NCBI GenBank assembly: GCA_029262035.1 | Contig: JAJDAE010000317.1 | Location: forward strand, 1-53,624 | Direction of reading: 5' to 3' | DNA: 53,624 nucleotides | DNA from: Candidatus Zhuqueibacterota bacterium | Lineage (GTDB): Bacteria; Zhuqueibacterota; Zhuqueibacteria; Oceanimicrobiales; Oceanimicrobiaceae | Shown: positions 4,835-53,624 of the stretch, piece by piece | Layout: the number at the start of each line of letters is the position of its first letter | Position numbering within the stretch: the stretch's first letter is position 1 | The notes under the pieces: model-generated | Databases searched by the model: none | Seen by the model: the letters and a program-made list of their open reading frames with translations, nothing else | What the model was told of the DNA's origin: nothing | Position numbers and translations under genes: made by a program

Positions 4835-6010
4835 TTACTTTACTTCAGATTCAATAAATTTGTACAATTCTTTGGTTTTGTTTAAATAAACATCGTAACT
4901 ATACTTATCTTCGGCAAGTTTGGCTGCGTTCTCACTAATTTTTTTACCCAAATTTTTATTTTTTAATATAGATAACAGACCGTCTCCAAAAGACTCAGGG
5001 GTACAATCTGTTAAAATTGAGACGTCCTTATTTAAGACCTGAGTATGAGTGAGATGATTTGTGGCAACAATCGGTTTTCCCGAACGAAGATAGGAGTAGA
5101 TTTTAAGCGGCGTATTGTTACCTTCCAGGCGTGGCGAAACGAGTATGTCTGAATTTTCGATATAGGCCGGTACCTCCTCGGGAACAACTGAGCCGGTAAA
5201 AAGAAAATGGCTTTCCATATTAAGTCGCTTTGTTTTTTCTTTATAAGCCTCAATTTGTTCAGGTTTTCCACCTACCATAACAAAGCGCACCTTAGGCGTA
5301 TCCTTTATCACTTTAACACTCGAATCGATTAGAAGATCGATACCCTGATAAGTTTCAAATGTACCCGCATATAAAACTGTGACCTCACCGTTTAATTTTA
5401 CTTTTTTCCTTATTGCCTGGCTATCTACTTCTGTATTAAAAACCAAGCTATTATCGGCCACGTTTTCGATCAAGACATTATGCTTGTCTGGGAATAATTT
5501 TCCAACATAATCATGCAACTCAGGACATATTGTAATAACTGCCTTAGCGCTTTTAATTGTGTAGTTTTCAAGTCCGTCGAAAATCTTTTTAATAATCCCT
5601 GACTTAGTAAACTTAAAATTTTCTAATTGTTGGGGCAAGCTTGAATGCATGTCATACAAATGTGTAATTCTATACTTATTGGCGAACCAGGCACACCAAA
5701 AACCAGCTTCTTCATGAGAATGAATAAGATCATAATTACCAGCTTTCAGCAAAGCTCTTGTTTTAAAAAGCAGAAGCAGATCAAGAATAATTTTGGGTTT
5801 AGAGGGCCCGATGGCAATTTTTTTAATAAACGGAACTTTAGCAATTCGATGGATAGTAACACCTTCAACTTCAACATCTTCACCAAGATGATAAGTTAAC
5901 AGATCAATTTTATACCCAAATTTCGAAAGTGCTTTAAGACGATGGAGCACGCTAAAAGGGGTGCCGCGGGGTTGAAAAAAAGGCTGTGGAGCAATCATTA
6001 AAACGCGCAT
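4835..6010 (-). CDS. GT4-family glycosyltransferase
   Basis: 391 residues from the ATG at 6010. GAGGTGA sits 5-6 nt upstream and decides this start over an in-frame start 10 codons earlier. The N-terminus (MRVLMIAPQPFFQPRGTP, then FSVLHRLKALSKFGYKIDLL) is the GT-B acceptor Rossmann half. IHSHEEAGFW lies in the first domain. LYAGTFETYQGIDLL and SDILVSPRLEGNNTPLKIYSYL are the donor-binding segments of group 1 transferases. It should transfer a nucleotide-activated sugar with retention to a lipid-linked or surface glycan; donor and acceptor are unknown. It is the first gene of a five-gene minus-strand run and is preceded by a candidate sigma-54 promoter. Confidence 0.88.
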   Translation of the reverse strand: MRVLMIAPQPFFQPRGTPFSVLHRLKALSKFGYKIDLLTYHLGEDVEVEGVTIHRIAKVPFIKKIAIGPSKPKIILDLLLLFKTRALLKAGNYDLIHSHEEAGFWCAWFANKYRITHLYDMHSSLPQQLENFKFTKSGIIKKIFDGLENYTIKSAKAVITICPELHDYVGKLFPDKHNVLIENVADNSLVFNTEVDSQAIRKKVKLNGEVTVLYAGTFETYQGIDLLIDSSVKVIKDTPKVRFVMVGGKPEQIEAYKEKTKRLNMESHFLFTGSVVPEEVPAYIENSDILVSPRLEGNNTPLKIYSYLRSGKPIVATNHLTHTQVLNKDVSILTDCTPESFGDGLLSILKNKNLGKKISENAAKLAEDKYSYDVYLNKTKELYKFIESEVK

Positions 6011-6075
6011 GTAAATCACCTCATTATCATTTTCAGTCACAAGAATTATATATTACAATTCAGCATACTTTTGCA

Positions 6076-6092
6076 GGCAATTATAATGCCAA
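6076..6092 (-). promoter_or_regulatory. Candidate sigma-54 (-24/-12) promoter upstream of the GT4 operon
   Basis: The minus strand reads TTGGCATTATAATTGCC. The invariant GG and GC dinucleotides are exactly 10 nt apart, matching the TGGCAC-N5-TTGCW consensus except for T at the sixth base and C at the last. It lies about 65-80 nt before the GT4 start codon, downstream of the terminator of the preceding exopolysaccharide operon, as expected for a new transcription unit. A sigma-54-dependent response regulator is encoded at the right end of the window; a link between the two is inference. Confidence 0.55.
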
Positions 6093-8772: not shown

Positions 8773-11100
8773 CTAATAATGATAATAACTATAGCCCGGG
8801 TGTGCCATATCTGCAGTTGTTCCATTCAATATGGTACCCAGTACATTTGCCGGAACACTGGCGAAAAGCTCCAGTTTTTGTTTTGCCAAATCCCGGTTAG
8901 TTTTACCTGCTCGAATAACGATAGCAACCGCATCCACCTGCGTTCCAATTACAACTGCATCAGTGGCTGCATTCAGGGGGGGGCTATCGAAAATAATCAG
9001 ATCGAATTTCCTTCTGGCTTCATCTAAAAAGCGCTGCATTTGGTGTGAACCCAACATCTCGCTAGGATTTGGTATAAGAGAACCACAGCTGATAAGCGTT
9101 AGGTTTGGAATATACGTTTCTTGTAGAACCGTTTCCAAGGGAAGCGCCCTGGTTAAATAATTTGTAAATCCAGGTTCTTTTATTAAACCAAAAGAATTGT
9201 GCAAAACCCCTCGCCTTAAATCTGCATCAATTAAAAGTGTATTTGTTTTTAATTGTGCAAAAGTAATCGCCAAATTTGCTGTTGTAAATGATTTACCGTC
9301 ACTAGGCTCATTGCTAGTAATAACCATAGACTGCAACCGACCAGTTTCTTTCGTGAAAAGTAGATTTGTTCGAAGTGAGCGATATGCTTCCCCTATTGGA
9401 GTTGGCGAATAATCATGTGTAACAATCTGCCGATCTATCTGTTTCATTTTTTCAGAATCCTGAAAATCACCAACATCATCAAAATCAATTAAAGGTATCG
9501 CTCCCAAAATTTGCAAATTCAGATATTTTTTTACATCATCGGCAGTTCGAATACTTTTATTAAAAACTTCAAGAATGATTACAAAACCAAGTCCAAATCC
9601 AAGTCCTAAAATGCCACCGACAGATGCTTGTATTTTTTTATTGAAGCTGGCAGGAAATTCCGGTTTAATTGCGGGATCAAGAATTTCGATATCTTCTGTC
9701 TCACCCACCGTCTTACCTTCAAAGCCCCTTAGCTCGCTGAGCGATTGGATATATTGTGACTCTAATACTTTGTTGTCTCTCTCCAATTCAGTTAATTGTT
9801 GCTCCTGTGCAGGTAATTGGCTCATAGAATATCTTAAGCTGTTCAACTTGCTTTGTATTCTTTTAACCTTTGAGTCTAAACTTTTAATTTCAGTTTGGGC
9901 AATATTCTCAATTTGGCCATGCGTTGCAATAATTTGGTTTTCAACTTCTTTAGCCCTATAGCTTTGTTCAGAAGAAGTCTGAATAATTTCTTCCCATTTT
10001 TTTTCCAAGTCTTTCAGCTTAGTTCTGAAAACAAGCATTGTAGCATTGTCATTGAAATAAGGACTATCAATAATTTGTCTGTAAATATAACGATTATCTA
10101 TTTTACTCGCGTTAGGATTATTGGCGTTTACGGACCCCACTCTGGCCTTCGCTATTAAATCTTTAATTGTTTGTGAATACGCCGAAAGCTTATCCTTATC
10201 CTCCTGCTTCAAGGCAACCTGAGTGACTTGCGTCTTCTGCTCTGAGTTGAGATTAACTGCGTAACGCTCTTTAAACTGTTTTAACTTTAGATCTGATTCC
10301 GCGAGTCGGGCGTTGGCTTCAGCATTACGCTCTTCAAGTAATGCTTTCCTCTTCTCGCCAGTGTCATCTTTCATTTGCGTACTTTCACGTACAAATGCCT
10401 TAGCCAATCGATTCGTCATTTCCGCCGCTAAAAATGCATCCTCATCAGACATTGTTACCGTCATTAAATTTCCAGACTTATTCCATTTTACATTGGTTTT
10501 ACTACGAAAATCCTTAACAGCATCTCTAAATGGTAAAATAGAAAATTTAATTTCCTGAGGTTGTTGTAATACCCTTTCTACAAGTTGAAACGAAAACCCA
10601 TTTAAAGAAAACGGTCTGTCAACAATATCATCGACACTACCTTCATATAAAACCCTATCTGCAATATCTTCAAAGCTTTCAATAAAGGAAAATTTAAAAT
10701 CACTATCTATCTTTAAAATATAATCGCCGGGAATGGCACTCATGGATGAATTAAAAGACTTAAATAATTCTTTTCTCGATGCCCCATCGTTTTCATCACT
10801 TGCATACTGCATTGTTAGCCCGAGCTCAGCCACAACTTTTTCAGCGAAGGATCTACTTGTAAGAACTGTAGTTCTACTTTGTCTTAAAACGTCATCATTG
10901 CGTTCATAACTCTTAAAAAGTACAACTGCTCTAGCCTCATATATTGGAGGAAGGCTTAAAGTATATAATAACCAAGGTATAAAAATTACAAAAGAAATAA
11001 TGAGGACTAACCACCAGCGTTGGATAATCGCTTTGTAGTAACGGCTAATATCAATTTTTTCATCTTGTATTAGCTCTTCATCGAGGTACATTGATTCCAT
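8773..11100 (-). CDS. wzc: Polysaccharide co-polymerase / tyrosine autokinase (Wzc-type)
   Basis: 775 residues. A Wzz chain-length domain begins with a membrane helix near residues 30-55. A long coiled-coil region and a GNVR-like segment (QLPAQEQQLTELERDN) follow, then a second membrane helix (GGILGLGFGLGFVII). The C-terminal BY-kinase has Walker A NEPSDGKSF, Walker A' LLIDADLRRG and DLIIFDSPP. The chain ends in a tyrosine cluster (YSYYHY), the usual autophosphorylation tail. It controls assembly and export of the polysaccharide together with Wza. The ATG at 11100 has GGAGTG 7 nt upstream and follows wza by 13 nt. The Walker A has D where GEGKS is usual, a common variation. Confidence 0.93.
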   Translation of the reverse strand: MESMYLDEELIQDEKIDISRYYKAIIQRWWLVLIISFVIFIPWLLYTLSLPPIYEARAVVLFKSYERNDDVLRQSRTTVLTSRSFAEKVVAELGLTMQYASDENDGASRKELFKSFNSSMSAIPGDYILKIDSDFKFSFIESFEDIADRVLYEGSVDDIVDRPFSLNGFSFQLVERVLQQPQEIKFSILPFRDAVKDFRSKTNVKWNKSGNLMTVTMSDEDAFLAAEMTNRLAKAFVRESTQMKDDTGEKRKALLEERNAEANARLAESDLKLKQFKERYAVNLNSEQKTQVTQVALKQEDKDKLSAYSQTIKDLIAKARVGSVNANNPNASKIDNRYIYRQIIDSPYFNDNATMLVFRTKLKDLEKKWEEIIQTSSEQSYRAKEVENQIIATHGQIENIAQTEIKSLDSKVKRIQSKLNSLRYSMSQLPAQEQQLTELERDNKVLESQYIQSLSELRGFEGKTVGETEDIEILDPAIKPEFPASFNKKIQASVGGILGLGFGLGFVIILEVFNKSIRTADDVKKYLNLQILGAIPLIDFDDVGDFQDSEKMKQIDRQIVTHDYSPTPIGEAYRSLRTNLLFTKETGRLQSMVITSNEPSDGKSFTTANLAITFAQLKTNTLLIDADLRRGVLHNSFGLIKEPGFTNYLTRALPLETVLQETYIPNLTLISCGSLIPNPSEMLGSHQMQRFLDEARRKFDLIIFDSPPLNAATDAVVIGTQVDAVAIVIRAGKTNRDLAKQKLELFASVPANVLGTILNGTTADMAHPGYSYYHY

Positions 11101-11113
11101 TATTTCACTCCAA

Positions 11114-11785
11114 TTATCTTGTAATTTGAATATATAATACAGCGATATTCATGCCAAAAGAGACAAACCCTAAAACATCTCGATAGGTAAATGGATTTTT
11201 GCTTGGCACAATAATTTGGTCACCAGTACGAATTCCAATATCTTGCAACGAATACCCGCTCTCGAAACTTTTCAGAAGATTTTTAATGGCAACACGTCCG
11301 CCTCTCTCAGTAAACATATTTTTTAATTCACTCTTTTCTGTTGGTCCGCCAGCAGTTTCAATTATTTCCCACAACGAAGCATTGGGTGGAATTAAATATG
11401 CCCCAGGACGATTTACAGCACCTTGAACAGTAACGCGAATTAATGGCGTTATTGAAACAAAAGGATCTTTTAAGAAAGGGATAAGTTTTTCTTTTATTAA
11501 ATCTGAAAGTGATTTGGCACTATGACCAACCACTTTAACTTCAGAGATAAGTGGAAGTAAAATATTACCTTGGTTATCAATAGCATAATCACCATTTAAA
11601 TCTTCAATTCCTGCATTACCCTCTGCCATTCTCCATGGTTGCCAAACCTTAACTCTTATTGCATCTCCTTTTGCAAACGTCAAAAAACGATTTTGAGAAT
11701 ACAAAGTTGTTGTATTACCAATAATCTGCAATCCAGTTACCAGTAAAACAAAGCTTAAAATTTTTCTGCATTCGTTAAAAAACAT
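11114..11785 (-). CDS. wza: Polysaccharide export outer-membrane protein (Wza/SLBB family)
   Basis: 223 residues with an N-terminal signal segment (ILSFVLLVTGLQIIG). A Poly_export domain follows (KGDAIRVKVW, DYAIDNQGNILLPLI, AKSLSDLIKEKL). The SLBB part reads VTVQGAVNRPGAYLIPPNAS, then LWEIIETAGGPTE. I see no lipobox cysteine, so anchoring differs from E. coli Wza; the C-terminal hydrophobic stretch (FVSFGMNIAVLYI) may hold it in a membrane. It forms the periplasm-to-exterior channel that works with Wzc. GAGGTGA lies 4-5 nt before the ATG. At 223 residues it is shorter than E. coli Wza, as in many Bacteroidota-type homologues. Confidence 0.88.
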   Translation of the reverse strand: MFFNECRKILSFVLLVTGLQIIGNTTTLYSQNRFLTFAKGDAIRVKVWQPWRMAEGNAGIEDLNGDYAIDNQGNILLPLISEVKVVGHSAKSLSDLIKEKLIPFLKDPFVSITPLIRVTVQGAVNRPGAYLIPPNASLWEIIETAGGPTEKSELKNMFTERGGRVAIKNLLKSFESGYSLQDIGIRTGDQIIVPSKNPFTYRDVLGFVSFGMNIAVLYIQITR

Positions 11786-44099: not shown

Positions 44100-45833
44100 T
44101 TAAAAAGAAAAACTCACTTCAAAATCAAAAAGCGTATTTTGCGAGTCACCCGATTCATCTTCAAGGCTGCGATCATCGTCAAAGTTTGCCAGCACAGTTA
44201 GCCGCCATTGGGGAGACAGTGTCCAGGTGAGAAAAATTAACAGGGAATTGTTACTCCGATCTGAATAAAGGCTATAACTGCTGGAATTTATCGAAGCCAA
44301 ATCCGTGTTCAAACGAATGGTGGTTGAATTTGTCAAAGAGGTATTGGGATACCTTCTAAACAAAAAAGCCTCACGCACTGTTAAAATGAGGCTGTTAATC
44401 TTAAAAACCTCAAGTGTGACGACGGGGCCGTATTCATAAAAATCTTCGAACTCAATGCTATAAACTGAGGAAACTGCATCCGTGACTGCATCGGAACTCT
44501 GGTCAAATTGAGCGAGTAATTTTTCATGAGTTTCTATGCCATAATGAAACCCGGCGCCGATCTTCCAATTTTGATTTAGCGTAAACATCATTTCAGGTTC
44601 AACATCCCAATTAAGCACATCAGGCAAACTATTTTCATTCACAAAGTCGTACTGGCGTTTGGTGAGAGAACCATCTAACTTCAAACCAAACCAATTTGTA
44701 AAATTCCACTCGATATCACCGGTAAAATAATTCTCCCAATAATCCTGTAGAAAATAATCCGCAGGTACATTTAGATAATTTCTGAACCTTAGTTCGTTGT
44801 CCAGGTTCAAACTTAGTCTGCTCCCAAAACCTTGACTCAAGCCAAGTAAAAAACCATTTTCTTTATAATCATTAATATCATTTTCCCGGTGCTGTCTTTG
44901 AACATTCCGGTAGCGTAAACTCAACTGTGAACTAAACCCCCAATTTAACCTGGAAGTCAAATCAAAAGAATTATTAATGTAACTCGAATAAATACTATCA
45001 CTCTCAACATAGTTGCGGATCTGAAAATCATCGCCGACTTCAAACGAAAAAGGCTTCACATTAAAAATGAAATCAAGGCTGGATAAATTTTGCAGGTACT
45101 TCAGGTCGAAATCACCATAGAATGAAGTCCCCTCAAAGCGGTTTTTAAAACGCCATTTTGCGGATGGTGACACACGCCAACTGTAATCAAAATAGGCTTC
45201 TCCCGAAAGATAGTCCTTGCTGTATTTAAAAAATGTATGGCCATTTAGTTGAGAGCCATTGGCGGAGGTGTAATCCATGCTAAACCTGACGCCGCTGAAA
45301 GGATTGCCGTTGCTTTCCAGAAAAGTGCTGTCTTCTTCCAAAATCTTCAGGCTAAATTCCTGCCGCCACAAGTCAACTCCGCTGATTAACTCATTCGACC
45401 ATTTTAATTTAGATTTATTAGAGCCAAGTCCATATCCAAAGCTTTCATCAAAAAGTGATGCATTTAAGTTTGTTTCTCCTGTTTCGGATTCTGATGGTTT
45501 GAGCAACTCCCAAATCGAATCGAGCCACAAATTTGCCATGTAAAAATCGTTGTTTTGCGATGCGGTTTTTGCTTCATTCAATAATTCCGGAAGCTGTTTT
45601 GCAACAAACGGATCCTCCATTACAGCCGGGTTTTGCTTTACCCATCTCTGTAATCGCAAGGCGCTAATTTTGTAGAGGGTCTCTTCATTCCAGTTTTCTT
45701 CACTTAATGAATCCAATTCTGTACTCGAACCCAGCCCGGAATTAGACTCACAAAATCCTTTCGGCAGAAAGAACACCAGGGAGAAGACCGGAACTAAAAT
45801 AAACCTAAAGAAACTGAGAATATTTTTTTTCAA
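44100..45833 (-). CDS. Predicted outer-membrane beta-barrel protein, family not recognised
   Basis: 577 residues; the only in-frame start is TTG at 45833, 4 nt after the stop of the 42-residue gene, with no clear ribosome site, suggesting coupled translation. Signal peptide MKKNILSFFRFILVPVFSLV, then a helical region to about residue 115 (RLQRWVKQNPAVMEDPFV). About 18-22 amphipathic strands rich in Phe, Tyr, Trp and Asn follow (GHTFFKYSKDYLSGEAYFDY, FTGDIEWNFTNWFGLKLDGS). The chain ends FDFEVSFSF, a C-terminal aromatic typical of barrel proteins assembled by BAM. Could be a porin, transporter or adhesin scaffold. Its upstream neighbours are all exported or membrane proteins. Confidence 0.65.
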   Translation of the reverse strand: MKKNILSFFRFILVPVFSLVFFLPKGFCESNSGLGSSTELDSLSEENWNEETLYKISALRLQRWVKQNPAVMEDPFVAKQLPELLNEAKTASQNNDFYMANLWLDSIWELLKPSESETGETNLNASLFDESFGYGLGSNKSKLKWSNELISGVDLWRQEFSLKILEEDSTFLESNGNPFSGVRFSMDYTSANGSQLNGHTFFKYSKDYLSGEAYFDYSWRVSPSAKWRFKNRFEGTSFYGDFDLKYLQNLSSLDFIFNVKPFSFEVGDDFQIRNYVESDSIYSSYINNSFDLTSRLNWGFSSQLSLRYRNVQRQHRENDINDYKENGFLLGLSQGFGSRLSLNLDNELRFRNYLNVPADYFLQDYWENYFTGDIEWNFTNWFGLKLDGSLTKRQYDFVNENSLPDVLNWDVEPEMMFTLNQNWKIGAGFHYGIETHEKLLAQFDQSSDAVTDAVSSVYSIEFEDFYEYGPVVTLEVFKINSLILTVREAFLFRRYPNTSLTNSTTIRLNTDLASINSSSYSLYSDRSNNSLLIFLTWTLSPQWRLTVLANFDDDRSLEDESGDSQNTLFDFEVSFSF

Positions 45834-45837
45834 ATTG

Positions 45838-45966
45838 CTATCTGAATAAAATAGAAACGATTATAAGCACCACGAAAATCAGAATGATCACCGGCAGTGC
45901 CGCTTGACCTAAAGTGATTTCTTTGCTGATTGTTTTTACAGGGCGAACTTTTTGATTAAGCAACAT
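45838..45966 (-). CDS. 42-residue single-helix membrane protein
   Basis: A short frame (ATG 45966 to TAG 45838). MLLNQKVRPVKTISKEITLG forms a basic N-terminus; the remaining 22 residues (ALPVIILIFVVLIIVSILFR in part) form one strongly hydrophobic helix. GGTG lies 6 nt upstream. It fits exactly between the T9SS-cargo gene (78 nt before) and the barrel gene (4 nt after), which itself lacks a ribosome site. That argues for a real, coupled gene. Possible roles: small membrane subunit or assembly factor. Function unknown. Confidence 0.6.
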   Translation of the reverse strand: MLLNQKVRPVKTISKEITLGQAALPVIILIFVVLIIVSILFR

Positions 45967-46044
45967 TTCTGCACCATATCTTATTAAAACGAGGATTCGG
46001 TGCCAACAACTTATACCGAATGAGCACCGAATCCCCGATTAAAT

Positions 46045-49000
46045 TTATTTCAACAACATCATGGTTTTAGACATTTTGAACTTGTTCCCGGCATTTATTT
46101 GATAGAAATAAATGCCGGAAGAAACAGACAGACCAAAATTATCTTTGCCATCCCATTGAACGCTATAAGCGCCGGCTTCCTGAACTTTACTTACCAGCGA
46201 CCGAACTTCCTGGCCGAGCAGGTTGAATATTTTCAGGCTGATATCAGCGCTTTCCGGAAGCTGATATCTGATAGCTGTTTCCGGGTTAAAAGGATTCGGA
46301 TAGTTTGCCATCAAACTGAATTGACCCGGCAGGGCAGAACCGTTCTCACCTTCAACACTGGTGATATTGTCCTCTTCCATGCTCACTTCAATATTCTCAG
46401 CATCATTGCCTTCGCCAACGGCCACAGCTTGTGCAGACTCAGCACTTGAACCGCCATAATAGCCCTCGGCGTATCCCGCTCCGGTGGCTTCAATTTTGTA
46501 TTCACCTGCTGCCAATCCGGTTATCACGAAATTGCCTTCTGCATCTGTAACCGCATTCACCTGTGCTTCATCATCCTGTGTGGCGTGTACCAAAATGCCA
46601 TCCAACGGTTTATCAGAAGTTGATTTGATTCTACCGCGAATTGCGTAAACGCCATGACCTTCAAGAGATGTCAGGCCAAAATCTATGCCCGTTTTCACCT
46701 GGTTTGGAAATACCTCAACGCGATCGGCATTGCGGAACAACTTTGCATCATCATAAAACTCGCCAATAAAATCAAGCGCCCAGGAAAAGACGAAATAATT
46801 TCCAGCCGGTAAATCGGTCAGCCGGTAATATCCATCCGGACCGGTAAATGTGATGTGTGGTCTACGTTTATTAGGTTTAACCGCGATGACTATTGCGCCG
46901 TGCAATGGCGTGTCATCGGTATCGGAGAAAACACGACCTGCGATGGTAGCGCCCGTGTCCTTGTGCGGTTCGAGATAGAAATCGATGTTCGGCGTAACAT
47001 CTGGAGAATTTACCACAACCGGTGTTGCGTCCCCGCGATGCCGGGCGTTTTCATAAAACTCGTTGAAATAGCCACGAGCAATAACTTGAACCAGATACTC
47101 GCCGGTTGGCAAGCCGGAAACCAGGTAGTTGCCATTTTCGTCCGTGTATTCAGCTTTGTGCCTGCCGGAATTTGGATCAAATACCCGTACAAGCGCTTTG
47201 GCCAATGGCATAGAATCTTCAGCCGAGGCCACAAAACCTGCAATCGCGCCACCTGCATCCAGAGTAAAATTAATATCGGTCACACTGGTATCTTCAGTAA
47301 TTTCAATGAACGTAGCTTCTTTTTTACTCGAAGCTTCTTCAAAAAATTCACGCAAATAATGGCGTGCATTGGCAACCACGAGATACTTACCCACAGGGAC
47401 ATTTTCGATGAGGTAATTTCCGAGCGAATCTGTTTTTCCACGGAACCCGACATCAGACAAAGAAGCATTAGTATTTCTTCTTTCCTTGAAGGCTTCAACA
47501 ATAGCGCCGGCAATAGGCTCGCCGGTGTTTTGATCTTTGACTGACCCGGCAATTGAACTACGTTTTACCAATGAAAAATCGACATCACTCGAGTGTGAGT
47601 CCGGGCTTACCAAAATAGGCGACGCCTGACTACGCTCATTTACATTGTCGTAGAACTCACCGTTGTAATTCTGGGCTGCTGCGTAGGCAATGTAGCTGCC
47701 CGGGCGTAACTGCACTAAATAATTTCCGTTGTCATCGCTGCGGGTTTCAACAAGAATACGCTTTGCATCACGCAACGAAGTTGCCAGGCTGCCATAGATT
47801 TTGATGTGTGCACCGGCAATGGCTGAACCGTCAACTTCATCGGTCACAGTTCCTGAAATTGCACTGGCCGGGCTCAAAATAAAATCTATTCCGGGCACTG
47901 CTTCCGGCTCAATAATATCGATGAAAGTTGCGCCGCCAAAATTCGGCGAATCGTCATAAAACTCACGCTTATAGCCGGATGCATTCGCCACAACAGCGTA
48001 AGAGCCTGAAGGTAAAGATTCGACTGAATAGGAACCATCATCTCCCGTAATAACGTGTCTCGCAAAACGAGGATTCACAACGAGGAATGCAACTACATGC
48101 GCGCCTTCAATTGCCGAAGTATCGGGTTCAACGGCTACCGTTCCTTGTATTTTTCCGCCTTCACTCAGGCCAAAATTGATATCTGTAATGCTGGTATCGC
48201 CCTGTACATTTAGCGGCGTTGCTTCGAGGTAATTTCGGGTATCGTCATAAAACTCACCGATAAATCCTCTTGCACGTGTGTGCAAAACATACACCCCGGG
48301 GATCAAATTTTCGATGGTGTAATTTCCACTATCATCGCTTTCGGCTTTTTGAATCCAGGGAATTCTACCCAGGCGAACAGCTCTGACAACGGCACCGCCA
48401 ATTGGTAAATTCTGAGCGTCCTGGGTTATGGCTCCGGCAATAGAACCTTCAGCAGGCTGGCTTACAAAAACATGCGCTGCTGCGCGTAATTTTAAACCAT
48501 CAACTTCAATATGCGCAATAACTTTGCCGTGGCCATTATCATCACCCGCCTTGAACAGGCCGTCATCATTAATTTTGCCTAAGCCATCCGGTTCAACCGC
48601 CCAGCGTACAAACTTAGGACGCACATTCAGATTGCCGCGGCTAACCACAACGTGAAAAGCTTGCTCACTTCCGGCAGGGACTACAGCTCTCCCGGGAACA
48701 ACTTTCACATCGAAAAACGGTTTTAGTATTCTACCAATCCGAATCAAAACACGTTTGGTAAAAACACGTCCACCGAGGCGTACAGCTACCTGAATTTTTA
48801 CTTCGCCAGGCTTCCGGCCTGCGATAAAAAAGCCATCATCCGTGATTGTTCCCATGGAATCCGGTTCGACTGTCCAGGTCATTTCATCAGCAAGTATTGG
48901 TGTATGTGCATCTTTGTTAATTGAGTAGGCGAAAACTTCAAGCTGAAGCCCCTGCCCTATTTCTAGTTCTGCGCTTTCCGGAGTTATCAGCACGTCCAAA

Positions 49001-49080
49001 TCCTGGGCATTCAGTCCAGAAAAACCTGTGCTAAAAATAACGCCTAACATCATTGCAAGCAGTAATTTAAATCTGTTCAT
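46045..49080 (-). CDS. T9SS-secreted protein with two Ig-like domains and seven carboxypeptidase-regulatory-like repeats
   Basis: 1011 residues. Signal peptide 1-25. Two BIG2-like beta domains (about 28-118 and 122-206, with TWTVEPDSMGTITDDGFFIA and RWAVEPDGLGKINDDGLFKA). Seven CarboxypepD_reg-like repeats of about 93 residues (213-306, 310-403, 407-504, 509-606, 611-703, 712-803, 814-900). A C-terminal sorting domain (925-1011) has NYPNPFNPETAIRYQLPE, FNLLGQEVRSLV and SGIYFYQI. Such tags direct type IX secretion and, in Bacteroidota, cell-surface anchoring. Six repeats keep an E-F-[YF]-[DE]-[DNE] motif. Likely a large surface fibre or adhesin; no catalytic domain seen. GGAG precedes the ATG. 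Confidence 0.85.
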   Translation of the reverse strand: MNRFKLLLAMMLGVIFSTGFSGLNAQDLDVLITPESAELEIGQGLQLEVFAYSINKDAHTPILADEMTWTVEPDSMGTITDDGFFIAGRKPGEVKIQVAVRLGGRVFTKRVLIRIGRILKPFFDVKVVPGRAVVPAGSEQAFHVVVSRGNLNVRPKFVRWAVEPDGLGKINDDGLFKAGDDNGHGKVIAHIEVDGLKLRAAAHVFVSQPAEGSIAGAITQDAQNLPIGGAVVRAVRLGRIPWIQKAESDDSGNYTIENLIPGVYVLHTRARGFIGEFYDDTRNYLEATPLNVQGDTSITDINFGLSEGGKIQGTVAVEPDTSAIEGAHVVAFLVVNPRFARHVITGDDGSYSVESLPSGSYAVVANASGYKREFYDDSPNFGGATFIDIIEPEAVPGIDFILSPASAISGTVTDEVDGSAIAGAHIKIYGSLATSLRDAKRILVETRSDDNGNYLVQLRPGSYIAYAAAQNYNGEFYDNVNERSQASPILVSPDSHSSDVDFSLVKRSSIAGSVKDQNTGEPIAGAIVEAFKERRNTNASLSDVGFRGKTDSLGNYLIENVPVGKYLVVANARHYLREFFEEASSKKEATFIEITEDTSVTDINFTLDAGGAIAGFVASAEDSMPLAKALVRVFDPNSGRHKAEYTDENGNYLVSGLPTGEYLVQVIARGYFNEFYENARHRGDATPVVVNSPDVTPNIDFYLEPHKDTGATIAGRVFSDTDDTPLHGAIVIAVKPNKRRPHITFTGPDGYYRLTDLPAGNYFVFSWALDFIGEFYDDAKLFRNADRVEVFPNQVKTGIDFGLTSLEGHGVYAIRGRIKSTSDKPLDGILVHATQDDEAQVNAVTDAEGNFVITGLAAGEYKIEATGAGYAEGYYGGSSAESAQAVAVGEGNDAENIEVSMEEDNITSVEGENGSALPGQFSLMANYPNPFNPETAIRYQLPESADISLKIFNLLGQEVRSLVSKVQEAGAYSVQWDGKDNFGLSVSSGIYFYQINAGNKFKMSKTMMLLK
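46381..48444 (-). repeat. Seven tandem protein repeats within the T9SS cargo gene
   Basis: Each unit of about 280 nt encodes I-x-G-x-V near its start, then I-x-G-A-x-V, D-x-x-G-N-Y, L-P-x-G-x-Y and, in six units, the acidic-aromatic motif EFYDD or a close form, followed by A-T/S-P. DNA identity between units looks modest by eye, so the repeats are old at DNA level though well kept in protein. Confidence 0.8.
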
Positions 49081-49124
49081 TTAAAAATCTCCGTGCGTTA
49101 TTTACAATAAATTCAGTTGACTTT

Positions 49125-49142
49125 GTAACTTCGAAAAGTTAC
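49125..49142. promoter_or_regulatory. Short perfect palindrome upstream of the T9SS cargo gene
   Basis: GTAACTT and AAGTTAC flank a 4-nt CGAA spacer, 45-62 nt before the start codon. It could be an operator half-site pair or an RNA stem in the leader. No T run follows on either strand. Function unproven. Confidence 0.35.
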
Positions 49143-49275
49143 TTTTCATAGCCCGTTAAAAATACCTTTCATCGATTACTCCGTTGGGCAAAACTTGTAA
49201 TGGGCCTTGTTAACAAGTTTTTAACCTGACGGGGTTTATTTCTTGTTTTCGATAAACACCCCCTTTTTTCTCAAT

Positions 49276-50814
49276 TTAATTTTTAGGTACATTTCGTAAA
49301 CTTTTTCTGATTAGATCAAATGCGATTTGCACTGCCTCGTTGGCTGCAATAAAGTTGCCTTTTCCAACAGACTCCGCTGCTACATTTCTGAGATCCCTGG
49401 CGCTTCTCAGTAACTGCCGGTTCCAGGTTTCATTAGTGAAATTTGCAATTCTATTTTCAGTTTCCACAATCGCTGCATCAAGTTGGCCAAGTTGTTGTTC
49501 AACATTTTTCTGCTCGATATTACTGCTTCCACCTTCATTCAGAACTTTTTCTGCGCGTGTCAGGAATCTCTGCGCCACCAAAGTTGACTCAAGCGCCAAG
49601 CGGTTCGTTTTTGCATTGGCAGCACGTTGTGCCCGGTTGATAGCAGCTTCGGCTACGTTGAGTAAGATTTTTGCATCCGCAGGGGAATCAGTTTGAATAT
49701 TTGCTTTAGCCCAGGAAATTTCATTTTTGGTATTTTCTATTTGCTGGAAAATGTTGCTCGAAAAATTTCTACGGCCGTTGTCTTGTGCAATTCGGATCGC
49801 TCTTCGAACCAGGTTTTCAGCCAGCTTTAATTTCCCCAGAGCTTCGGGGTTTTTCCCGGCCCGAGCTAAAGTTTGCGCCTGATTCAAAATGTTGTTTGCC
49901 CGGTTAAAAAGGATTTTAGGGCGGGGTTTATCGCTTTGCTCAATCAAATCACGTGACTGCTCGATAAAATCGCGCAGCCGCACAAATTTATCCTCAATCC
50001 CAACATCACTCACTGCAACCCCACGATCTGTTGAGGCCAAATTTATGGCGCGTAACAGGAGTAACGAAGCCTGATCCAATAATTTTTTCGCAAGACTTTT
50101 TCTGCCATTGCTATAAGCTGTCAGCGCATTGTGGGCAGTGGTCAATGCATTCTGGTAAGTCTGTCTGGCCAAATGGCTCTGCGAACGCTCAACCAGATTT
50201 GCGGCACGTTCTTTTAGGTTTTCAAACTTTCTTTTCTCTTCGGCGAGAACATCGGCGTCACCCGTGTTTGAAAACGATTTTGCCAGGGTTATTGCTTTGT
50301 TAACCAAGGTCAAAGCCAAGTTGTAATGCTCAAAGGAGCGCTCGTACCGCTTGGCCCCAAAAGCCCGCTCAGCGCTGTTGTAATTATTTTTAGCTTGTTC
50401 AAGTAAACGCTGGGCTTCACGCTGTCTCGTGTTTGAAACCAATTGTTCCGCTTGGGTGAAACGTTCGCTTATTCTGTTCCGCAGTCTGCCGACAGTTCCT
50501 GCGAACGTCTTAATTGCTATTTCTTCAGCACGATCAAGCAAAGAGACCGCAGCTCGAATTTTAGCAACTGCCAGCGTAAAACGCTTATCCTTTGCATCGG
50601 CCACTGCTTCTTCCCGCAACTGTTGCGCTTTCAAAACCATCTCCAGCGCTCTATCGTTGCCGGAAACAGTCAGAAAATTAATCAAGCGTTCAATCCGGAA
50701 ATCCAACTCCTGAAGTAATTTTTCGACGTCGGTTCTGTCTTGTGCAAAACCGTTCGGCAAAAAGACATTGGCGATGAAGAGTACAAGCAAGATTTGTTTT
50801 AATATTTTAATCAT
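49276..50814 (-). CDS. Exported alpha-helical repeat protein, family not recognised
   Basis: 512 residues. Signal peptide MIKILKQILLVLFIANVFLP then NGFAQ. The mature chain is almost entirely helical with recurring L-L-x-x-A-x-x-L-A phrases (LLDRAEEIAIKTFAG, LVNKAITLAKSF, LLLRAINLASTD, ILNQAQTLARAG, FLTRAEKVLNEG), which suggests eight or more antiparallel helical hairpins like TPR or spectrin-type bundles. No enzyme motif or C-terminal secretion tag is visible. It is the first gene of the surface cluster, 195 nt before the T9SS cargo gene, with a candidate sigma-54 promoter 42-57 nt upstream. A periplasmic scaffold or chaperone is one possibility. Confidence 0.6.
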   Translation of the reverse strand: MIKILKQILLVLFIANVFLPNGFAQDRTDVEKLLQELDFRIERLINFLTVSGNDRALEMVLKAQQLREEAVADAKDKRFTLAVAKIRAAVSLLDRAEEIAIKTFAGTVGRLRNRISERFTQAEQLVSNTRQREAQRLLEQAKNNYNSAERAFGAKRYERSFEHYNLALTLVNKAITLAKSFSNTGDADVLAEEKRKFENLKERAANLVERSQSHLARQTYQNALTTAHNALTAYSNGRKSLAKKLLDQASLLLLRAINLASTDRGVAVSDVGIEDKFVRLRDFIEQSRDLIEQSDKPRPKILFNRANNILNQAQTLARAGKNPEALGKLKLAENLVRRAIRIAQDNGRRNFSSNIFQQIENTKNEISWAKANIQTDSPADAKILLNVAEAAINRAQRAANAKTNRLALESTLVAQRFLTRAEKVLNEGGSSNIEQKNVEQQLGQLDAAIVETENRIANFTNETWNRQLLRSARDLRNVAAESVGKGNFIAANEAVQIAFDLIRKSLRNVPKN

Positions 50815-50855: not shown

Positions 50856-50871
50856 GGCAAAAGATATGCCA
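50856..50871 (-). promoter_or_regulatory. Candidate sigma-54 (-24/-12) promoter of the surface cluster
   Basis: The minus strand reads TGGCATATCTTTTGCC: the GG and GC dinucleotides are exactly 10 nt apart and TTGC is complete. The start codon at 50814 lies about 42 nt beyond the -12 element, a normal leader length. An NtrC-type regulator gene lies about 1.5 kb upstream, making control by it or a relative plausible. Confidence 0.6.
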
Positions 50872-51010: not shown

Positions 51011-51099
51011 AATCATCATTCTAAAATCGTTAATCGACATTAGTTATTCAATAAACCAGAGTACATTGAATATCTAATGTCGATTAACGAATGATGATT
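51011..51099. repeat. Long inverted repeat, about 35-bp stem
   Basis: Left arm 51011-51052 and right arm 51065-51099 are near-perfect inverted copies (shared cores AATCATCATTC, CGTTAATCGACATTAG, TATTCAAT). The left arm carries six extra bases and there is a single mismatch; the loop is about 12 nt. Neither strand has a T run after the stem. It lies after sdpI and before the surface-cluster promoter. It could be a mobile palindromic element, a structured RNA or a transcript-end stabiliser. Confidence 0.7.
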
Positions 51100-52291: not shown

Positions 52292-53624
52292 TCAGTTTTG
52301 AGGAATCCCCAAACGCTCCATCATTGAATACAACTTCCGGCGGGTGATGCCGAGCAATTTAGCGGCATTACTTTTATTGCCGGCGGCCTTGTGCAGAGCG
52401 TTTTTGATAAGGTCTACTTCAACTTGTTCCATGGAAAGACCACATTCGGGGATTTCAATGGCAGTGGAGCCGGTGGCAGCAGGCAGACTTTTAACGTGCG
52501 GCGGGAGATCTTCAATGCTGATTTTTTCATTGCCGGCCATAATCACGGAACGTTCGATGATATTTTCCAACTCGCGCACGTTGCCGGCCCAGTTATATTT
52601 TGTCAGGCGGTCGAGGGCATCCGGAGTGATACCATCTTCCGGCTTGCCAAATTTCTTCAGGAAATGCGTCACCAAATTAGGGATGTCTCCCTTGCGCTCA
52701 CGCAGCGGCGGCAGTACAATCGGGAAAACATTGATGCGGTAGTACAAATCTTCGCGGAAAGTATTATCCTTGAGCATCTCCTCCAACGGTCGGTTGGTGG
52801 CAGCAATAATTCGCGCTTTAATTGTGATGGTTTTGGTACCGCCGAGGCGTTCAATCTGACGGCTTTGCAGCACGCGCAATAGCTTAACCTGAGTGGCGGG
52901 TGTTACCTCACCTATTTCATCGAGAAAAATTGTGCCATTACCGGCTAATTCAAAACGGCCGACTTTCATTTTATCTGCGCCGGTGAAGGCGCCCTTTTCA
53001 TGGCCGAACAATTCGCTTTCAAGCAGGCTTTCCGGCAATGCACCACAATTGACAGCTACAAATGGGGCGCTGGCACGGGGGCTCAGTTGGTGAACGGCCT
53101 GAGCGATCAATTCCTTGCCTGTGCCGCTTTCCCCACGAACCAGAACCGTGGCATCGGTGGGAGCGACTTTTTCTGCCATTTTATAAACTTGCTGCATGGC
53201 GCCGCTCGCCCCGACCATATTTTCCAGTGAATATTTATTTTTGAGCTGTTTTTTAAGTTGAATATTTTCAGCCTTAAGCTCACGCTTTTCCATGATGTGA
53301 TTGACTTTGACTTTGAGCTCATCCATTTCAAACGGCTTGATAATATAATCGTACGCGCCTTTCTTCATGGCGTCCACGGCATTTTGCGCAGTGGCGTAGG
53401 CAGTCATGAGAATGACTTCCGTCTCAGGCCGTTTCTTTTTCACTGTGTCCAGCACAAACAGTCCGTCTTTACCGGGCATTTTTAAATCCGTGATAACCAG
53501 ATCAAATTCACCCAACTCAAATTTGGCCACGCCGTCTTCAGCGCTATCGGCAGTAGTCACGCTGTAGCCAATGGGCTCCAGTGCAAATTTCAAAATTTTG
53601 CTCATTTTAGGTTCGTCGTCGATA
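52292..53624 (-). CDS. Sigma-54-dependent response regulator, NtrC family (N-terminus cut by window edge)
   Basis: Partial at its 5' end: the frame continues past the apparent Met at 53605 to the window edge as IDDEPK, the acidic-pocket beginning of a receiver domain, so the true start is outside. The receiver has phospho-acceptor LVITDLKMPGKDG, then T and K switch residues (LMTAYAT, YIIKPFE). The AAA+ domain shows Walker A GESGTGKE, the sigma-54 contact loop GAFTGA and Walker B FLDEIGE. A Fis-type helix-turn-helix (GNKSNAAKLLGITRRKLYSM) ends the chain. It activates sigma-54 RNA polymerase when phosphorylated. No kinase is visible; it may lie beyond the edge. Confidence 0.95.
   Translation of the reverse strand, partial: IDDEPKMSKILKFALEPIGYSVTTADSAEDGVAKFELGEFDLVITDLKMPGKDGLFVLDTVKKKRPETEVILMTAYATAQNAVDAMKKGAYDYIIKPFEMDELKVKVNHIMEKRELKAENIQLKKQLKNKYSLENMVGASGAMQQVYKMAEKVAPTDATVLVRGESGTGKELIAQAVHQLSPRASAPFVAVNCGALPESLLESELFGHEKGAFTGADKMKVGRFELAGNGTIFLDEIGEVTPATQVKLLRVLQSRQIERLGGTKTITIKARIIAATNRPLEEMLKDNTFREDLYYRINVFPIVLPPLRERKGDIPNLVTHFLKKFGKPEDGITPDALDRLTKYNWAGNVRELENIIERSVIMAGNEKISIEDLPPHVKSLPAATGSTAIEIPECGLSMEQVEVDLIKNALHKAAGNKSNAAKLLGITRRKLYSMMERLGIPQN

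What the first reader, a model, noticed from the sequence alone, without database searches (positions are those of the whole stretch)
44100..50814. Unrecognised four-gene cell-surface cluster
In transcription order: a secreted helical-repeat protein, a 1011-residue T9SS cargo with Ig and seven carboxypeptidase-regulatory-like repeats, a 42-residue membrane helix, and a 577-residue outer-membrane barrel. All four are exported or membrane proteins; the barrel has no ribosome site and starts 4 nt after the small gene. None matches a system that I can name. A surface fibre with its own outer-membrane and periplasmic partners would explain the set.
Basis: partly seen in the sequence, partly recalled or inferred. 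Interest (0 to 1): 0.68.

Follow-up and report, generated by a model that had tools for sequence, protein, structure and literature searches.

The report
Phylum-wide T9SS cargo and barrel operon
Three of the four genes form a gene set conserved across a little-known bacterial phylum, probably switched on by the alternative sigma factor 54, that makes one large secreted surface protein together with an outer-membrane barrel and a periplasmic rod-like protein that belong to no described family; what it does for the cell is unknown.

Summary
The four ORFs are real and in the order described (minus strand). In 82 genomes of the phylum, cargo and barrel co-occur in 43 and disagree in 9. Wherever two members share a contig they lie on one strand: helical+cargo 37/37, cargo+barrel 27/27, helical+barrel 24/24. 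The cargo keeps about 1010 residues and one architecture (two Ig-like, seven carboxypeptidase-regulatory-like domains, T9SS tail); it is the best conserved member. The 42-residue gene is not core: only two of the cargo-barrel loci examined have one like it.

New findings: (1) a sigma-54 promoter motif before the helical gene in 21 of 24 helical-first loci, against 2 of 277 other genes; in two loci with another gene order it precedes the first gene instead; (2) an RNA element between helical and cargo genes, found once per genome; (3) a strong hairpin after the cargo stop. The genome encodes SprA, the PorU sortase and about 140 T9SS tails.

Barrel and helical protein match no family convincingly. 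Best explanation: a sigma-54-controlled module that displays one T9SS cargo, held by a dedicated barrel with a periplasmic rod partner. The anchor and rod roles are inferred. The fibre idea is untested.

The parts
50857..50871 (-). Sigma-54 (-24/-12) promoter motif TGGCATATCTTTTGC, about 43 nt before the helical gene
   Evidence: Motif present before the helical gene in 21/24 helical-first loci (18 by script, this window copy, and L074 and L081 after correcting ORF starts); 2/277 other genes; coordinates
49276..50814 (-). HELIX: 512-aa secreted (Sec signal) protein, about six three-helix repeats of about 82 residues; presumed periplasmic
   Evidence: ORF; AF2 model pLDDT 79; self-profile offsets 78/82/165/249; single unit resembles 4fzp/4fzo/2pmr (TMt 0.75-0.80); orthologs in 51/82 genomes
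49257..49269 (-). Degenerate copy (AAAAAAGGGGGTG) of an extended Shine-Dalgarno-like sequence that relatives carry as AAAGGAGGTGA just after the HELIX stop
   Evidence: 15/30 HELIX stops against 4/229 other genes; sequences; coordinates
49178..49235 (-). Intercistronic RNA hairpin: conserved outer stem (CCCCG...CGGGG; one mismatch here) around a variable inner stem with GGCCCA in the loop
   Evidence: SD + stem pattern found exactly once in each of 8 of 11 genomes, at this place, none in reversed-pattern control; fold z-scores -1.4 to -6.9 in the window's family; outer stem hardly varies so covariation is not informative; window copy is degenerate
46045..49080 (-). CARGO: 1011-aa T9SS cargo, signal peptide, two Ig-like, seven CarboxypepD_reg (transthyretin-like) domains, C-terminal sorting domain
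   Evidence: Pfam/NCBIfam; all 27 aligned orthologs carry CarboxypepD_reg, FlgD_ig and Por_Secre_tail; 34-58% identity over full length
46063..46302 (-). T9SS type A sorting domain of the cargo (residues 927-1006, PNPFNPET motif)
   Evidence: PF18962 4.5e-11, TIGR04183 3.4e-13; also found by whole-genome search
45990..46037 (-). Strong hairpin just after the cargo stop; likely mRNA 3' stabiliser or partial terminator
   Evidence: -26.7 kcal/mol, z -3.8; relatives have hairpins of other sequence at the same place, median -23 against -9.8 kcal/mol for other genes, p 1.4e-12
45838..45966 (-). 42-aa single-pass membrane protein; accessory, not part of the conserved core
   Evidence: ORF; similar 35- and about 38-aa ORFs (motif LxxAALP) only in G005 and G006
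44100..45833 (-). BARREL: 577-aa outer-membrane protein, helical periplasmic domain about 50-111, barrel about 142-577 (roughly 18-20 strands)
   Evidence: ORF; AF2 (pLDDT 54, low); Foldseek hits only to barrels in general; orthologs in 46/82 genomes, ending in an outer-membrane-type terminal F
52292..53605 (-). NtrC/AtoC-like sigma-54 activating response regulator, candidate activator; directly upstream of HELIX in several relatives, here separated by SdpI- and ArsR-like genes
   Evidence: Pfam; NCBIfam AtoC/PrsR-like below equivalog cut-offs; synteny in L063, L065, L070, L073, L076, L078; histidine kinase next to it in L063

Best explanation
HELIX, CARGO and BARREL form one envelope module transcribed from a sigma-54 promoter, with the neighbouring NtrC-type two-component regulator as the likely activator in some families. 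CARGO crosses the inner membrane by Sec and the outer membrane by the T9SS, and is displayed as an elongated surface protein of nine beta-sandwich domains. BARREL is its dedicated outer-membrane partner (anchor or shuttle). HELIX, a rod of three-helix bundles, works in the periplasm with the cargo or with the barrel's helical N-domain. RNA elements on either side of the cargo cistron set cargo expression apart from that of its partners. Strongly supported: gene set, co-occurrence, domain content, T9SS presence, sigma-54 motif, cargo-flanking RNA structures. Inferred: barrel as anchor or shuttle, helical rod as periplasmic partner, RNA elements as expression control, the identity of the activator, and any fibre or coat.
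For: Single-strand synteny of HELIX-CARGO (37/37), CARGO-BARREL (27/27) and HELIX-BARREL (24/24) where on one contig; cargo/barrel co-occurrence 43 both, 30 neither, 9 discordant, Fisher p 3e-13 without phylogenetic correction. Order changes to cargo-helical-barrel in other classes while linkage is kept. The sigma-54 motif sits before the first gene under both gene orders. Fixed cargo architecture in 27 orthologs. T9SS in this genome: SprA, PorU over its curated cut-off, about 140 sorting tails, one PorP/SprF elsewhere. Precedent: T9SS cargo genes linked to genes of a cognate outer-membrane barrel that is needed for secretion or binds the cargo (PMC12618676, PMC9143113). Cargo cistron flanked by RNA elements.
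Against: BARREL is not PorP/SprF, PorV or any named family. The known dedicated barrels serve type B cargo, whereas this tail is type A, for which PorV and PorU suffice in the model organisms. Eight genomes keep HELIX without either partner, and f8/f11 carry BARREL away from HELIX-CARGO, so the three are not inseparable. GroEL-based codon usage does not mark the cargo as unusually highly expressed. The barrel model is of low confidence. No direct evidence of protein contact.
Confidence: 0.45

Rival explanations
1. The module works with exopolysaccharide: the cargo is a matrix or coat protein that holds polysaccharide at the cell surface, and the barrel is a polysaccharide-related outer-membrane protein in the manner of EpsL, with sigma-54 control as in PEP-CTERM/exosortase systems.
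For: 2 of 30 barrel orthologs match TIGR03014 EpsL, best 2.9e-5. HELIX-CARGO is divergently next to an SLBB/Poly_export gene in L099, and to a PrsT-like TPR gene with glycosyltransferases in L072. The window's other end carries a polysaccharide cluster with a sigma-54-like motif at 6077-6091 before a glycosyltransferase. A PEP-CTERM gene is RpoN-dependent and involved in floc formation (PMC9850573).
Against: EpsL match absent in the window protein and 27 other orthologs; polysaccharide genes are not constant neighbours; no exosortase or PEP-CTERM features; the sorting tail is T9SS.
Confidence: 0.25
2. BARREL and HELIX are an outer-membrane/periplasm tether or channel of their own, and the cargo is merely co-regulated with them.
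For: BARREL lies apart from HELIX-CARGO in f8/f11, next to a LiaF-TM-like membrane protein; in five C-first genomes and G076 BARREL directly follows HELIX by 31-170 nt.
Against: HELIX is even more tightly linked to CARGO (37/37), and BARREL's presence tracks CARGO best (43 both, 9 discordant).
Confidence: 0.17
3. BARREL is a Slam-like exporter: periplasmic helical domain plus barrel that puts a co-encoded substrate on the surface independently of the T9SS.
For: Same general layout; 1 of 30 orthologs has a marginal SlipAM match, E 0.0085.
Against: Marginal in one member only, none in the window protein; predicted barrel is larger than my recollection of the Slam barrel (about 14 strands, not tested); cargo carries a T9SS tail.
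Confidence: 0.05
4. Chance neighbourhood of unrelated envelope genes.
For: Each gene alone resembles common envelope genes.
Against: Conserved same-strand synteny and shared promoter position across several families and more than one class.
Confidence: 0.02

Closest known systems
T9SS type B cargo with cognate PorP/SprF-like shuttle (e.g. SprB-SprF, PG1035-PorP)
   Same: T9SS cargo gene linked to a gene for a specific outer-membrane barrel (PMC12618676, PMC9143113)
   Different: Type A tail; barrel not detectably related to PorP/SprF, larger, with its own helical periplasmic domain; extra helical-rod gene; sigma-54 promoter motif
PEP-CTERM/exosortase surface-protein systems with PrsK/PrsR and RpoN
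   Same: Sorted surface proteins, sigma-54 promoter, NtrC-type two-component regulator with a full-length TIGR02915-like response regulator (below cut-off), polysaccharide genes nearby in some genomes
   Different: No PEP-CTERM tail; sorting is T9SS; RR and kinase fall below the PrsR/PrsK cut-offs
DUF357-type three-helix bundle (2pmr; uranyl binding protein 4fzo/4fzp)
   Same: Fold of a single HELIX repeat, TMt 0.75-0.80, rmsd about 2; 2 of 28 orthologs match DUF357 in Pfam
   Different: Here about six tandem copies in a secreted protein; no significant E-value in Foldseek; homology unproven; that 4fzo and 2pmr are DUF357-type is from memory
STAB-SD plus 3' inverted repeat mRNA stabilisers of Bacillus cry genes
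   Same: Non-initiating extended Shine-Dalgarno upstream and stable hairpin downstream of one cistron (PMC4113751)
   Different: Intercistronic, in a Gram-negative lineage, with an additional unique hairpin; effect on stability not shown; window copy of the SD degenerate

Membership tests
T9SS cargo (type A) | Sec signal plus C-terminal Por_Secre_tail/TIGR04183 domain | tested here: met
   PF18962 43.3 bits (cut-off 27), TIGR04183 49.4 bits (cut-off 23); 27/27 orthologs; signal peptide judged by eye
T9SS cargo (type A) | Secretion machinery in the same genome | tested here: met
   SprA_N over cut-off; PorU sortase 870.9 bits, cut-off 420
T9SS cargo (type A) | Actual secretion through the T9SS | not testable with these tools
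   No expression or proteome data
PorP/SprF shuttle | Match of BARREL to PF11751 | tested here: not met
   None of 30 orthologs matches at E 0.05; the genome's PorP/SprF match is elsewhere, C129
PorV shuttle | Match of BARREL to a PorV or T9SS barrel model in NCBIfam | tested here: not met
   No T9SS model among matches of 30 orthologs or of the window protein
Slam (SlipAM) | PF04575 barrel domain | tested here: not met
   One marginal hit of 30 (E 0.0085), none in window protein
EpsL polysaccharide outer-membrane protein | TIGR03014 match | tested here: inconclusive
   2 of 30 orthologs, best 2.9e-5; not the window protein
Sigma-54-dependent operon | -24/-12 motif TGGYAY-N5-TTGC before first gene | tested here: met
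   21/24 helical-first loci against 2/277 other genes
Sigma-54-dependent operon | Transcription start and RpoN dependence | not testable with these tools
   Needs start-site mapping or an rpoN mutant
DUF357 family (HELIX repeats) | Pfam match of the window protein | tested here: not met
   Window protein no match; 2/28 orthologs best 1e-5

The most novel reading that the evidence does not exclude
A previously undescribed, phylum-wide surface-display system: one T9SS cargo of fixed architecture held by a barrel of a new family that is coupled through its periplasmic domain to a rod of three-helix bundles, under sigma-54 control, with the cargo cistron bounded by dedicated RNA elements that set its stoichiometry.
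Probability: 0.3. Interest if true: 0.75.

Novelty: new variant of a known kind. Interest (0 to 1): 0.56.

Why it matters
It gives an uncultured phylum a conserved surface structure with a testable gene set, two protein families not convincingly matched by Pfam or NCBIfam, and the suggestion that T9SS type A cargo can also have a dedicated barrel partner. The sigma-54 motif gives a handle on when the surface protein is made and predicts a two-component system that controls it. The RNA element found once per genome between helical and cargo genes is a compact candidate for post-transcriptional control of a surface protein.

Tried and rejected
Four-gene system including the 42-aa gene: rejected as core, only G005 and G006 have look-alikes. 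PorP/SprF, PorV and Slam membership of BARREL: not met. Solved relatives by sequence: none for BARREL, only generic TPR/MIT/designed helical proteins for HELIX. Foldseek of BARREL: generic barrel hits at TM 0.2-0.33, uninformative. HELIX and BARREL N-domain homology: weak (probability 44%). Very high cargo expression from codon usage: not supported. Rfam: only sub-threshold chance matches. Sigma-70 and terminator consensus scan: at chance level. Covariation of the intercistronic stem: outer stem too conserved to test, inner stem not alignable. Pseudoknot between loop GGCCC and downstream GGGCC: seen by eye in about 4 of 7, not pursued. LiaF-TM protein as a member: downstream of BARREL in 17 loci, but no match in the window's genome.
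Full report
OBSERVATION. Pfam and NCBIfam support the cargo's domains (seven CarboxypepD_reg stretches, Big_2, FlgD_ig, Por_Secre_tail/TIGR04183) and find no convincing family for the other three proteins. The barrel has one copy in its own genome. The window is a whole contig of a 5.3 Mb draft genome; the nearest named relatives are candidate division KSB1 MAGs.

CONSERVATION AND SYNTENY. Searches of the 82 genomes held for the phylum found BARREL in 46, HELIX in 51 and CARGO in about 49 (the cargo list was curated by hand to set aside paralogs and keep contig-end fragments). HELIX and CARGO occur together in 40 genomes and are neighbours on one strand in all 37 where both lie on one contig. 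CARGO and BARREL occur together in 43, and in all 27 same-contig cases CARGO precedes BARREL on the same strand. HELIX and BARREL share a contig and strand in 24. Co-occurrence of cargo and barrel has Fisher p about 3e-13; this is not corrected for shared ancestry and should be read as descriptive. The order is HELIX-CARGO-BARREL in most families and CARGO-HELIX-BARREL in others. In f8 and f11 BARREL lies apart from HELIX-CARGO. Eight genomes keep HELIX alone. Seventeen genomes outside the phylum had none.

WHAT VARIES. Between CARGO and BARREL lie different things: a short membrane protein resembling the window's 42-residue one in G005 and G006 only, a WXXGXW lipoprotein, a DUF1800/DUF1501 pair (intact in G005 and G007, a fragment in G006), or nothing. 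A roughly 230-residue LiaF-TM-like membrane protein follows BARREL in 17 loci but was not found in the window's genome. A roughly 320-residue lipoprotein with a choice-of-anchor X domain joins the set in five loci.

PROTEINS. CARGO is the best conserved (34-58% identity to the window copy over 27 orthologs, mean column identity 46%); all members carry CarboxypepD_reg, FlgD_ig and the sorting tail. HELIX is predicted all-helical (pLDDT 79; the pTM of 0.29 means relative repeat placement is undetermined). Its profile matches itself at offsets of 78, 82, 165 and 249 residues, so about six 82-residue three-helix repeats. A single repeat resembles DUF357-type bundles, without a significant E-value. 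BARREL has a helical N-domain and then roughly 18-20 strands, but the model is poor (pLDDT 54, three sequences). Orthologs gave only marginal Pfam matches (SlipAM 0.0085 in one) and an EpsL match in two.

SECRETION. The genome encodes SprA, PorU well over the curated cut-off, one PorP/SprF and 141 matches to the sorting tail. CARGO is therefore very probably exported by the T9SS; whether it is anchored by PorU, by BARREL or by both is open.

REGULATION. A strict sigma-54 motif TGG[CT]A[CT]N5TTGC stands before HELIX in 18 of 27 loci by script, against 2 of 277 other genes, 0 of 29 CARGO and 0 of 30 BARREL (Fisher p 2e-20). With the window, after leaving out loci where HELIX is not the first gene, and correcting two over-long ORF starts (L074, L081), it is 21 of 24, with one-letter variants in two of the remaining three. 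In the cargo-first loci L085 and L087 a TGGCAC-N5-TTGA motif stands at the start of the first gene, a lipoprotein. In the window the motif is at 50857-50871. An NtrC/AtoC-like response regulator lies directly upstream in several f1 and f6 genomes, with a histidine kinase beside it in L063; that it acts on this promoter is inference.

RNA ELEMENTS. After the cargo stop there is a strong hairpin in most loci (median -23 against -9.8 kcal/mol for other genes, p 1.4e-12), of unrelated sequence between genera and mostly without a U-tract. After the HELIX stop there is an extended Shine-Dalgarno sequence that precedes no obvious gene start (15/30 against 4/229), followed in the window's family and in G032, G035 and G053 by a CCCCG...CGGGG stem. 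The combined pattern occurs once in each of eight of eleven genomes, always here, and never in the reversed-pattern control. The window's own copy is degenerate and did not match. The arrangement recalls the 5' STAB-SD and 3' inverted repeat that stabilise cry mRNA (PMC4113751), but codon usage does not show the cargo to be unusually highly expressed.

MECHANISM. The most economical reading is a surface-display module: T9SS cargo, dedicated barrel, periplasmic rod, switched on by sigma-54. The barrel-cargo link rests on synteny, co-occurrence and analogy with PorP/SprF-type pairs (PMC12618676, PMC9143113), not on contact evidence. The chief rival is a polysaccharide-linked matrix system, suggested by weak EpsL similarity, occasional polysaccharide neighbours and the RpoN-dependent PEP-CTERM precedent (PMC9850573).

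VERDICT. A real, conserved and apparently unnamed gene set; a new variant of T9SS cargo with a partner barrel rather than a categorically new machine. The fibre hypothesis and the membership of the small gene are not supported by the present evidence.

Noticed in passing
window 6077-6091 (minus), before gene 4835-6040: A second sigma-54-like motif (TGGCATTATAATTGC) upstream of a glycosyltransferase gene near polysaccharide genes (Wzz-like 8773-11100, Poly_export/SLBB 11114-11785).
   Followed up: partly
L065:6190-9073, L067:380-3162, L066:5200-5457: DUF1800/DUF1501 gene pair inserted between cargo and barrel in two genomes, with a DUF1800 fragment left in a third: apparent gain and decay at this slot.
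   Followed up: partly
17 loci, e.g. L063:4823-5512, L090:8741-9445, L096:8408-9115: LiaF-TM-like membrane protein of about 230 aa directly downstream of the barrel, also where the barrel has moved away from the cargo; no match in the window's genome.
   Followed up: partly
L072:10552-11520, L074:11087-12148, L085:1358-2293, L086:3-941, L087:8691-9707: A lipoprotein of about 320 aa with a choice-of-anchor X domain joins the cluster in these loci; first gene of the unit in L085 and L087.
   Followed up: partly
L073:10785-11090, L085:5724-6038 and similar: A WXXGXW-repeat lipoprotein of about 100 aa occupies the slot near cargo and barrel in several families.
   Followed up: no
window 51022-51094: Near-perfect inverted repeat (ATGTCGATTAACGAATGATGATT and its complement) upstream of the helical gene; Rfam reports only sub-threshold microRNA look-alikes.
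   Followed up: no
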